64,000 nt of DNA from positions 1 through 64,000 of the forward strand of contig MKRX01000015.1 of assembly GCA_001898035.1 (NCBI GenBank), written 5' to 3'. The DNA comes from Armatimonadetes bacterium 55-13. GTDB taxonomy: Bacteria > Armatimonadota > Fimbriimonadia > Fimbriimonadales > Fimbriimonadaceae. A program made the position numbers and the translations under genes. How positions within the stretch are numbered: position 1 is the stretch's first letter; each line of letters begins with the position of its first letter. The notes under the pieces were generated by a model that was given only the letters and a program-made list of their open reading frames with translations, searched no databases and had not been told where the DNA came from. Shown one piece after another: positions 29,978 to 33,086 of this stretch.

Positions 29978-30001
29978 CGCCTAAATAACGTTATTTGGGC
30001 G
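29978..30001. promoter_or_regulatory. 24-bp perfect palindrome after the nucleotidyltransferase gene
   Basis: The stretch 29978-30001 reads as its own reverse complement apart from one G-T pair (29982/29997). It lies 18 bases past the stop codon and 125 bases before the LGFP-protein start. It could be a terminator hairpin (no U-tract) or an operator. Confidence 0.45.
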
Positions 30002-30126
30002 ATCTATCTTTGGTGAGTTACCGGTTACTGAATATAGCAAGATTATTCCCTTTTACGAGGTTTTGTTCAACATTCCCGGCAAAACGGACTTATATTGACA
30101 GCACTTCTATTGAGGAGAACTTGCAT

Positions 30127-33042
30127 ATGCGCACAGTTGCTACTGGTTCGACTACTGTTTTGCGACCCGCCCGGGGAATCACCCTGTTGGCGGGTAAGAA
30201 AGTGAAGACTAACAACTTCGGGACCGTCACGCTCAGCAATGAGATTTACGACAAGTGGGTTCAGATTGGCGTCGCCACCCTTGGCGACCCGATTCAGAGC
30301 TACTTCAGTCTGCCGGACGGCTCGTCGGCTTGTTACTTTGAACGAGGGATGATCGTGCACCGGAAAGCCGGGGGCACTTTCGCAGTTTACGGAGCGATTT
30401 ACCTTCAATACCGTAACCTGAACGACGTACATAGTTTCTTGGGACTGCCCAAGAGCGACGAACAAGCGGCCGCCAACGGAGGTCGCGTTTCGCACTTCGA
30501 AAACGCCGACATCTATTGGAGCGGCGGATCGGGAGCGTTCGAGGTTCATGGAGCGATTCGCGATCGATACGCGGCGCTCGGGGGTCCGGGAGGCTTCCTG
30601 GGCTACCCACTGACCAACGAAACCCAAATCTTCAAGAACCGCGTTGAAGTGGGTCGGTTTAACCGGTTCCAGGGTGGCGTGATTTATTGGAGCTCAGGCA
30701 CTGGCGCTTGGGAAGTCCACGGCGATATTCGTAGAAAATACGAGGACGAGTTGGACGGCCCGATTGGCGAGATGGGCTTCCCGACATCTAACGAAGGCTC
30801 CACACCCAAGGGAGCGGCCCGGTACAGCAATTTCCAGAATGGCGTGATCCTTTGGTTCAATTCCTACGCGAACATGCGGATCATCAAGAATCTGGAGCTT
30901 TACATCGACCGAATCGGCTCAAAAGGGGACGACGGTTTCTTGGGCGGTGGTCAAGACGTTTACATCATCATGGACATCTCGTCGTCGCGCGGCTATCACG
31001 TTCGCGAACGCATTCCGAAAGATGGAGATCTGGGCTCAGACAAAACGCTGAACCGAGTCCTTCCTCGCTTTGGCGTACCGACGGGCGACATGTCGATCCA
31101 CGTGAAATTTGAGGGGTGGGACTCCGACAGCGGCTTCATCAGAGGCTGGTTTGGAGATAACGACGACAAGCTGGGGACCGTGGATAAGACGTACACGGCC
31201 GACGATCTCTGGGGCATGAACGATCCGGCTACTCACTGGGCGGGCGACTTTATGATCGTCTACAAAGTTCGAGACGTGACGAGCTACGATCCTCATCAGT
31301 TCCGCAAGAACCTGTGGTGGAACTACGACAACTTCTCCACAGCGACACTTAGCAAGAGCCAGTACGCTCAGACTTTCCGGGACGTGGACGAGGACGAGTC
31401 GGTGATCTGGCATCCTTTCAATGCGGCCTACTATGAGTTGGTCTACAAGGGAGTGGCGGCCGGTGGGAACTGCTTTGGCATGTGCGTTGAGTCAATCTAC
31501 GCTCAAGTATGCCGATCCATCTATAACGAGCCGATCGGGCGCTTCCCACCGACAAACGGAACCGAACCTCAGCCGGGCACCCATAACGAGATGATCAATG
31601 AGATCAACATCAAGCATGGGTATCAGGTTGGCGCTTCGTTCATCGACTGGTTCCTGGGACACTTCATCTCAGGCGGCACGCACGATCCCGTACGCTGCTT
31701 CAGAGAGAGTCGGGACCAGTTTGCACGAGGAAACTATCCAATCATCTCGCTGACCAGCGATTACTGGGGGGCGGGTGGACATGCGGTGCGTCCTTACGCT
31801 TGGGACGACAGTACGAAGCCCTGGAAGATCAAGATCGCCGATCCGAATCGGCCGTATCCGCGCGTTCCGAACGACAATGACCCGGGGAACATCATCACGA
31901 TCGATCCCGACAAGAACACGTTCCACTTCAACGGCGCGGGCGGAACCGCGTACGACGGCGGAGCCTGGACGGGCGGACGTATGTTCTCCATACCGTTCAA
32001 CGTGCTATGCGAGCAGCCCCGGACTCCGTTCTGGGAGGCGTTGGCGCTCCTCGTTGGAGGAACCCTGCTGATTATCGGCGGCGATGCCTCGACAAAGAAC
32101 ATCACCGATGGATCGGGCAAGACGTTCTTCGAGCCAAACCTGGGGCATCTTCCCGAGAAATGGGCGGACATACGCAAGGACACGAATCAGCGCATCCCGA
32201 ACATGGCCCTTCTGCCGGTGCTGCACGATCTGAGCGCAGTACTTCGGGGGCGGACGGTGCTGGATGCCAACATCCTCAAGCGACTTCTCACCAAGGAGGG
32301 CCCAGGGCAGGTCTTTTATCTGCACCGTCCGGCAGCTTCTCACGGTCCAGAAGGAGCCATCTCGACTGGTGTGGCGACCGACGTAGGTCATGCGGTCATT
32401 GCGGGTGCGGTTACTGCGACCACCGCGACAACTGCGGCAACAACGGGGACGGCGGTCCGAAGCGGCATTACCGACGTGGTTACAGGGACGCTTCTGAATG
32501 CACTCCAATCCAACGAAATCACTCATGAGATCGAGGGAACGGGGACCAGCGGATATCAGTGGGGGTATCGATCTCCTACCATGACCGCAGTGGTGAAAGC
32601 TAACTTGGGAAGCGGCAAGGTGGACAAGGTTTCGGTGAGTCCGATGAATACGGGCAATCCTGAAGTCTCTCTCCTCCCTGAATCTGATAAGGTCGTAGCC
32701 CTTTCGGTCACCCGATGGTCGGACCAAGCTCAGCGAACGCGTGGTTACGATGTGACGAACCTTCAGGCTAAGGCAGGCGCAAAGGTTAGGGCACGGCTTG
32801 AGGACGACGGCGAGACGCTCATGCTCCATAGCGAGGGTGGCGATGCGAAGTTCGACCTGAGCGTTCGATCTGGCGCGACGCTGACCCCCCAAGTTCAGAA
32901 GAAGCAGGTCGAGCTCAAGCAGGGTGAAGTCATTCGGCTTACGCCTTCAGAGTGGAAACCGACAGAAATGGTGCAAGCTCCCATCAAGATGAGAGCCTTC
33001 GATGGCAGTGGAAAGAATCTGCTTCGAGAAGCAGATCTTTAA
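30127..33042 (+). CDS. LGFP-repeat protein with papain-like cysteine-peptidase domain
   Basis: 971 residues from ATG 30127, which has GAGGAG 9 bases upstream. Residues ~30-260 hold about four LGFP-type repeats (motifs LGLPKSDE, LGYPLTNE, MGFPTSNE, each after a W/Y-rich turn), a cell-wall-binding module known from actinobacterial surface proteins. Residues ~430-590 have a papain-like pattern: NCFGMC (Cys449), GGHAV (His552) and ADPN (Asn574), giving a plausible Cys-His-Asn triad. A hydrophobic stretch sits at ~636-655 and the last ~230 residues are low-homology. No classic signal peptide is visible. It is flanked by envelope genes; a surface protease or glycan-modifying enzyme is inferred. Confidence 0.72.
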   Translation: MRTVATGSTTVLRPARGITLLAGKKVKTNNFGTVTLSNEIYDKWVQIGVATLGDPIQSYFSLPDGSSACYFERGMIVHRKAGGTFAVYGAIYLQYRNLNDVHSFLGLPKSDEQAAANGGRVSHFENADIYWSGGSGAFEVHGAIRDRYAALGGPGGFLGYPLTNETQIFKNRVEVGRFNRFQGGVIYWSSGTGAWEVHGDIRRKYEDELDGPIGEMGFPTSNEGSTPKGAARYSNFQNGVILWFNSYANMRIIKNLELYIDRIGSKGDDGFLGGGQDVYIIMDISSSRGYHVRERIPKDGDLGSDKTLNRVLPRFGVPTGDMSIHVKFEGWDSDSGFIRGWFGDNDDKLGTVDKTYTADDLWGMNDPATHWAGDFMIVYKVRDVTSYDPHQFRKNLWWNYDNFSTATLSKSQYAQTFRDVDEDESVIWHPFNAAYYELVYKGVAAGGNCFGMCVESIYAQVCRSIYNEPIGRFPPTNGTEPQPGTHNEMINEINIKHGYQVGASFIDWFLGHFISGGTHDPVRCFRESRDQFARGNYPIISLTSDYWGAGGHAVRPYAWDDSTKPWKIKIADPNRPYPRVPNDNDPGNIITIDPDKNTFHFNGAGGTAYDGGAWTGGRMFSIPFNVLCEQPRTPFWEALALLVGGTLLIIGGDASTKNITDGSGKTFFEPNLGHLPEKWADIRKDTNQRIPNMALLPVLHDLSAVLRGRTVLDANILKRLLTKEGPGQVFYLHRPAASHGPEGAISTGVATDVGHAVIAGAVTATTATTAATTGTAVRSGITDVVTGTLLNALQSNEITHEIEGTGTSGYQWGYRSPTMTAVVKANLGSGKVDKVSVSPMNTGNPEVSLLPESDKVVALSVTRWSDQAQRTRGYDVTNLQAKAGAKVRARLEDDGETLMLHSEGGDAKFDLSVRSGATLTPQVQKKQVELKQGEVIRLTPSEWKPTEMVQAPIKMRAFDGSGKNLLREADL

Positions 33043-33051
33043 GTGAGATTG

Positions 33052-33086
33052 GAGGCGGTTCGCTTGCGCGAGTCGCCTCTCTTTTT
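33052..33086 (+). terminator. Terminator after the LGFP-protein gene
   Basis: GAGGCG (33052-33057) pairs with CGCCTC (33074-33079), then T5 at 33082-33086. The inner loop can pair further. Confidence 0.7.

What the first reader, a model, noticed from the sequence alone, without database searches (positions are those of the whole stretch)
30127..33042. LGFP repeats joined to a papain-like domain with a Cys-His-Asn triad
LGFP repeats are wall-binding modules best known in Actinobacteria. Here four of them precede a domain with NCFGMC, GGHAV and DPN in the order and spacing of a papain-like triad. It lies in a block of peptidoglycan and glycan genes. It could be a surface protease, an amidase or a cell-cell interaction effector; the lack of a clear signal peptide is a puzzle.
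Basis: partly seen in the sequence, partly recalled or inferred. Interest (0 to 1): 0.72.

Follow-up and report, generated by a model that had tools for sequence, protein, structure and literature searches.

The report
LGFP–C2–papain-like orphan enzyme
A bacterial gene encodes a large, so far undescribed enzyme that joins a cell-wall-binding module, a calcium/membrane-binding (C2) module and a papain-like cutting domain; distant bacteria carry the same lone gene without any recognisable export signal, so where it works is an open question.

Summary
The N-terminus is an LGFP domain (E 6e-49); Pfam counts four repeats, but the model matches the whole five-repeat MytA domain (Z 23.3). The domain carrying Cys449, His552 and Asp572/Asn574 has no Pfam or NCBIfam family. 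Modelled alone (pTM 0.82), it matches only papain-like enzymes in the 50 best solved structures (Z 4.5-7.7), with Cys at the start of the core helix and His on the second strand.

Relatives with LGFP, C2 and catalytic domains are rare single genes in seven phyla, in unrelated neighbourhoods. All 16 with a readable start lack a signal peptide. A sister clade in Armatimonadota keeps the catalytic and C-terminal parts, lacks LGFP and C2, and has signal peptides.

The third triad residue is more likely Asp572 than Asn574, though 574 is invariant. I could not measure distances.

Best reading: a wall- and membrane-docking thiol hydrolase, probably a protease, of an undescribed papain-like family. 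Active site and architecture are well supported; substrate, location and calcium dependence are inferred.

The parts
30127..33042 (+). LGFP-C2-papain-like protein, 971 aa, with stop
   Evidence: start supported by GAGGAG at 30112-30117
30112..30117 (+). Shine-Dalgarno-like GAGGAG, 9 nt before the ATG
   Evidence: sequence printed
29978..30001 (+). terminator-like hairpin between the upstream gene and this one
   Evidence: consensus match; number of such matches not above the shuffled expectation
33051..33080 (+). terminator-like hairpin directly after the stop (13 pairs, 8 G-C, T tail); with the upstream hairpin this suggests a monocistronic gene
30196..30888 (+). LGFP domain, residues about 24-254, five repeats
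   Evidence: Pfam PF08310; Foldseek E 1e-15 and VIA Z 23.3 over 212 residues to 6swz
30886..31284 (+). C2 domain, residues about 254-386; Ca2+-loop-3-like motif WDSD...DNDDKLG at 331-350
   Evidence: VIA Z 9.7 to 3jzy and 7as6, Foldseek prob 1.00; motif conserved in most of the clade
31285..32022 (+). papain-like catalytic domain, residues about 387-632
   Evidence: AF2 pTM 0.82; all 50 best VIA rows are papain-like, top Z 7.7
31471..31473 (+). Cys449 codon, first residue of the core helix 449-460
31780..31782 (+). His552 codon, on strand 551-560
31840..31842 (+). Asp572 codon (Asp 30/33, Asn 3/33), directly after strand 566-571; likelier third triad residue
31846..31848 (+).
32026..32085 (+). 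hydrophobic segment, residues 634-653, present in the LGFP clade only; modelled as helix 635-644 plus strand 646-652
32218..32505 (+). low-confidence linker, residues 698-793
32509..33036 (+). C-terminal beta domain, residues about 795-970, shared with the secreted sister clade

Best explanation
This is a member of an undescribed papain-like (clan CA type) thiol hydrolase family that carries its own targeting modules. The five-repeat LGFP domain docks on cell-wall polysaccharide and the C2 domain docks on phospholipid membrane, probably with Ca2+. That places the papain-like domain at the wall/membrane boundary, where Cys449 (nucleophile at the start of the core helix), His552 (base) and Asp572 (or Asn574) cleave an envelope substrate, most likely a protein. 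The protein has no Sec signal; it reaches its site by a non-classical route or by cell lysis. Shown here: architecture, conservation of the active-site residues, papain-type secondary-structure order, lack of a signal peptide, patchy spread. Inferred: catalysis, substrate class, calcium dependence, location.
For: LGFP and C2 folds are well matched. Catalytic domain: AF2 pTM 0.82 with 32 sequences; all 50 best VIA rows are papain-like enzymes spanning nearly the whole domain, led by the proteases streptopain Z 7.7 and staphopain Z 7.4. Cys449 and His552 are invariant in 33 sequences. The order (Cys at N-terminus of core helix, His on strand 2, polar residue at the end of strand 3) is the canonical one described in PMC10318531. 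LGFP of MytA binds wall peptidoglycan-arabinogalactan (PMC11299179).
Against: Each single fold match is weak (best Foldseek E 0.06, best VIA Z 7.7); profile comparison with C39 and C1 families is not significant. No signal peptide in any of 16 LGFP-clade members with a readable start, which fits an extracytoplasmic role poorly. No activity data. C2 Ca2+ ligands are incomplete in three near relatives (Asp334 missing in L027-L029).
Confidence: 0.5

Rival explanations
1. A cytosolic, Ca2+-gated cysteine protease, calpain-like by convergence: the C2 domain senses Ca2+ influx at a damaged membrane and recruits the papain-like domain there; LGFP (and LamG in Bacteroidota-type members) binds glycans inside or exposed by damage.
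For: No signal peptide in all 16 readable LGFP-clade members versus a clear one in all 11 readable sister-clade members; C2 next to a papain-like domain; C2 domains also occur in eukaryotic calpain-5/tra-3 (PMC4631099).
Against: LGFP and LamG are normally extracytoplasmic; no Pfam calpain match; bacterial calpains are described as a different family.
Confidence: 0.2
2. A peptidoglycan amidase/endopeptidase (autolysin or endolysin-like), with LGFP as wall-binding module as in mycobacteriophage-type lysins.
For: A PHROGs endolysin family matches through the LGFP part (E 1e-29); endolysins also often lack signal peptides (own knowledge).
Against: The endolysin match covers LGFP only; no NlpC/CHAP/Amidase Pfam match; NlpC/P60 has His as third residue (PMC10318531) where this family has Asp/Asn; no relative in 2.9 million viral contigs or 50,697 phage records.
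Confidence: 0.15
3. An injected effector carried by an extracellular contractile injection system (eCIS), which would explain the missing signal peptide.
For: Contractile tube genes (PF06841) exist in the window's own genome and in 6 of 18 host genomes tested.
Against: Not above background: 13 of 101 relatives of the window genome and 24 of 60 genomes of one host's own family have the tube; absent from the nearest relative with the gene (G147) and from the genome of a complete Luteimicrobium chromosome; no shared neighbour of any kind.
Confidence: 0.06
4. A papain-fold acyltransferase, transglutaminase or catalytically dead binding protein rather than a hydrolase.
For: Papain-like folds include these activities (PMC10318531); a phytochelatin synthase is among the matches, Z 6.0.
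Against: Invariant Cys and His argue against a dead enzyme; the best matches are proteases.
Confidence: 0.09

Closest known systems
Corynebacterium glutamicum mycoloyltransferase A (MytA/PS1) LGFP domain, PDB 6swz/6sx4
   Same: The five-repeat LGFP domain over its whole length (Z 23.3, 29% identity)
   Different: MytA has a mycoloyltransferase domain before the repeats; here C2 and papain-like domains follow them
Streptopain (C10), staphopain (C47) and other papain-like cysteine peptidases
   Same: Fold order and active-site order of the catalytic domain; best structural matches
   Different: No sequence-level match; the LGFP and C2 modules and the GGNC[FY]GM motif are not theirs
C39-type peptidases (PF13529, PCAT1)
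   Same: His strand followed by a strand ending in a DP motif, seen directly in the alignment of C39_2 proteins of the same group of bacteria; VIA Z 6.2 to PCAT1
   Different: No Pfam match, profile comparison not significant; different motif round the Cys
Calpains, including bacterial calpains
   Same: Papain-like catalysis; C2 domain present in calpain-5 and tra-3
   Different: No Pfam calpain match; C2 lies before the catalytic domain here; LGFP is not mentioned in the survey of bacterial calpains
Mycobacteriophage-type endolysins with LGFP (phrog_2998)
   Same: LGFP wall-binding module
   Different: Different catalytic domain; not phage-borne

Membership tests
LGFP repeat (PF08310) | Profile match over the curated cut-off | tested here: met
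   164.6 bits against a cut-off of 22
LGFP repeat (PF08310) | Fold of the five-repeat MytA domain | tested here: met
   VIA Z 23.3, rmsd 2.5, 212 of 216 residues
LGFP repeat (PF08310) | Binding to cell-wall polysaccharide | not testable with these tools
   Needs a pull-down with sacculi
C2 domain | C2 beta-sandwich fold | tested here: met
   Z 9.7, rmsd 3.7, 113 residues to 3jzy and many other C2 domains; Foldseek prob 1.00
C2 domain | Acidic Ca2+-binding loops | tested here: inconclusive
   Loop-3-like D-x-D...D-D-x-L-G in most members, but Asp334 missing in L027-L029; no Pfam C2 match
Papain-like superfamily (clan CA) | Cys at N-terminus of core helix, His on strand 2, polar residue on or after strand 3 | tested here: met
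   Cys449 opens helix 449-460; His552 on strand 551-560; Asp572 follows strand 566-571
Papain-like superfamily (clan CA) | Fold similarity to solved members | tested here: met
   All 50 best VIA rows are papain-like, though each Z is middling, 4.5-7.7
Papain-like superfamily (clan CA) | Triad atoms within bonding distance | not testable with these tools
Peptidase_C39, Peptidase_C1 and other Pfam papain-like peptidase families | Curated profile match | tested here: not met
   Only LGFP matches Pfam over its cut-off
NlpC/P60 | Cys-His-His triad (third residue His) | tested here: not met
   Asp/Asn at 572 and Asn at 574 in all 33 members
Calpain (Peptidase_C2, PF00648) | Curated profile match | tested here: not met
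   No match
eCIS cargo | Linked to, or co-occurring above background with, a contractile injection system | tested here: not met
   No linkage seen; co-occurrence at background level

The most novel reading that the evidence does not exclude
A bacterial, cytosolic, Ca2+-gated cysteine protease that evolved independently of calpains: C2 recruits it to a breached membrane and LGFP/LamG read exposed wall glycan, so that the enzyme is activated or released only on envelope damage. The gene moves alone between phyla.
Probability: 0.12. Interest if true: 0.78.

Novelty: new variant of a known kind. Interest (0 to 1): 0.52.

Why it matters
It adds a papain-like family that matches no Pfam or NCBIfam model, in a domain combination (LGFP, C2, papain-like) for which I found no description in the library searched. 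C2 domains are mainly known from eukaryotes, so a Ca2+/membrane module fused to a bacterial cysteine hydrolase makes bacterial calcium-controlled proteolysis directly testable. The clean split between members with a signal peptide and no LGFP/C2, and members with LGFP/C2 and no signal peptide, turns the export question into a simple comparison.

Tried and rejected
Conserved neighbours: none among 18 loci apart from the two Luteimicrobium species, so no operon, immunity gene or secretion partner. eCIS: 6 of 18 hosts looked like enrichment at first, but background in one host's own family is as high. Empty-site comparison: what follows the sugar-nucleotide gene differs between relatives, so no clean empty site. 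Mobile elements: no relative in plasmids, phages or viral contigs. Sequence route to a known peptidase family: no Pfam/NCBIfam/PDB match beyond LGFP; profile comparison with C39 and C1 not significant, though both align the GHAV motif on the catalytic His. NlpC/P60 and CHAP did not appear among the 50 best folds, which is not evidence against them. The hydrophobic segment 634-653 is modelled as a short helix plus strand, not as one membrane helix. PADLOC: no match.

Full report
Observation. The ORF at 30127-33042(+) encodes 971 aa. The ATG has GAGGAG nine nucleotides upstream. The longer reading from the TTG at 29995 starts inside a terminator-like hairpin (29978-30001), and a terminator-like hairpin of 13 pairs with a T tail follows the stop (33051-33080), so the gene is probably monocistronic. 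Pfam finds only LGFP (PF08310, E 6.3e-49, four stretches); NCBIfam finds nothing.

Architecture. An AlphaFold2 model of the whole protein on 33 sequences (mean pLDDT 80.9, pTM 0.65) gives four folded parts. Residues 24-254 match the complete five-repeat LGFP domain of C. glutamicum MytA (VIA Z 23.3, 212 of 216 residues). Residues 254-386 are a C2 domain (Z 9.7 to intersectin-2 and plant synaptotagmin C2 domains; Foldseek prob 1.00). Most LGFP-clade members keep a loop-3-like motif W-[DE]-x-D...D-[DN]-x-[LM]-G of the kind found in Ca2+-binding C2 domains (own knowledge), but the three nearest non-Armatimonadota relatives lack the second Asp. Residues 387-632 are the catalytic domain. A low-confidence linker (698-793) leads to a beta-rich C-terminal domain.

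Catalytic domain. Modelled alone on 32 sequences it reaches pTM 0.82. No Foldseek hit is significant (best staphopain, E 0.06). In the second look by VIA-align all 50 best rows are papain-like: streptopain, staphopain, interpain, PCAT1 (C39), IdeS, phytochelatin synthase, AvrPphB, UfSP, cathepsins; Z 4.5-7.7, spanning model residues 2-245. Each Z is middling, but a list with no unrelated fold is hard to obtain by accident. Topology fits the description of the superfamily in PMC10318531: Cys449 opens the core helix, His552 lies on the second strand, and Asp572 directly follows the third.

Third residue. Asp572 is Asp in 30 and Asn in 3 of 33 members; Asp and Asn are both standard at this place in papain-like enzymes (PMC10318531). 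It sits in a DP motif that looks like the NDP motif of C39_2 proteins from the same group of bacteria. The hairpin between strands 551-560 and 566-571 would pair His552 with about residue 574, so 572 is two residues off that pair, as I recall for Asn175 in papain (own knowledge). Asn574 is invariant, however. Both remain possible; Asp572 is favoured. Distances were not measurable here.

Relatives. A scan of 84,980 species genomes with the motif GGNC[YF]GM[SCT] gave 33 loci. In a tree of the catalytic domain they fall in two well-supported clades (100/99). The LGFP clade holds the window protein and members from Acidobacteriota, Actinomycetota, Chloroflexota, Bacteroidota, Pseudomonadota and Nitrospirota, that is seven phyla with Armatimonadota; the three members scanned from the Bacteroidota-type branch carry a LamG-like domain before LGFP. 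The second clade is confined to Armatimonadota in this sample, has a weakly TIG-like region in place of LGFP and C2, and shares the catalytic and C-terminal domains. The window protein groups with Acidobacteriota, Actinomycetota and Chloroflexota sequences rather than with the Armatimonadota clade, although the support of that inner group is moderate (93/87). The phylum of the window is inferred: loci that the genome tool calls 'same phylum' are identical in sequence to records named Armatimonadetes.

Signal peptide. By hydropathy of the first 45 residues, all 16 LGFP-clade members with a readable start lack a hydrophobic N-terminal segment (best 12-residue mean at most 1.5), and all 11 readable members of the other clade have one (at least 2.5). 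Start codons were chosen by eye and no dedicated signal-peptide predictor was available. The LGFP clade instead has a hydrophobic stretch after the catalytic domain (634-653), which the model does not show as a membrane helix.

Neighbourhood. No neighbour gene is shared between loci except between the two Luteimicrobium species. In the nearest relative with the gene (G147, 56% identity over the C2-to-catalytic stretch) it lies just downstream of an EF-Tu gene. In six relatives of the window the upstream sugar-nucleotide gene is conserved, but the gene of interest is not found within the stretch fetched beside it (short in one). It is absent from the plasmid, phage and viral collections. It therefore looks like a lone, rarely transferred gene, and the 'glycan block' around it says little.

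Export. A contractile injection system was tested as carrier. Tube genes occur in 6 of 18 hosts, but also in 13 of 101 relatives of the window genome and in 24 of 60 genomes of one host's family, and the loci show no such cluster in common. This does not support the idea.

Verdict. The finding is real, richer than described in one respect (the C2 domain) and less certain in another (the triad's third residue). The protein is a member of known superfamilies (LGFP, C2, papain-like) in a combination for which I found no description, within a catalytic family that has no curated model. That it is an active hydrolase is likely; that it is a protease working at the cell envelope is the best guess; how or whether it leaves the cell is unknown.

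Noticed in passing
window:48513-50870 (+): A major facilitator transporter (residues 36-391) fused to a C-terminal run of HEAT repeats, an uncommon fusion.
   Followed up: no
window:27435-29960 (+): A fused sugar-1-phosphate nucleotidyltransferase and phosphomannomutase/phosphoglucomutase-like protein; 60-83% identical in seven of nine other genomes tested, all of the same family.
   Followed up: partly
window:26670-27362 (+): A YkuD-type protein nearest to LdtF/DpaA (E 3e-45, below NCBI's cut-off), listed with a TTG start.
   Followed up: no
window:24321-26663 (+): A 780-aa protein with CARDB and weak F5/8 type C matches.
   Followed up: no
window:7834-14700 (-): A run of three large proteins with invasin/Ig-like, FlgD-Ig-like and collagen-like repeat matches.
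   Followed up: no
G000:C1:312710-320753: The window's own genome has two tube-protein genes of a contractile injection system type (PF06841), found in about an eighth of its relatives.
   Followed up: partly
L045-L059: Sister clade in Armatimonadota/Zipacnadia with signal peptides and the same catalytic and C-terminal domains; one genome (G250) has two matches about 1.6 kb apart in separate open frames.
   Followed up: partly
window:51757-52113 (+): tmRNA gene with tag ANNNYAFAA.
   Followed up: no
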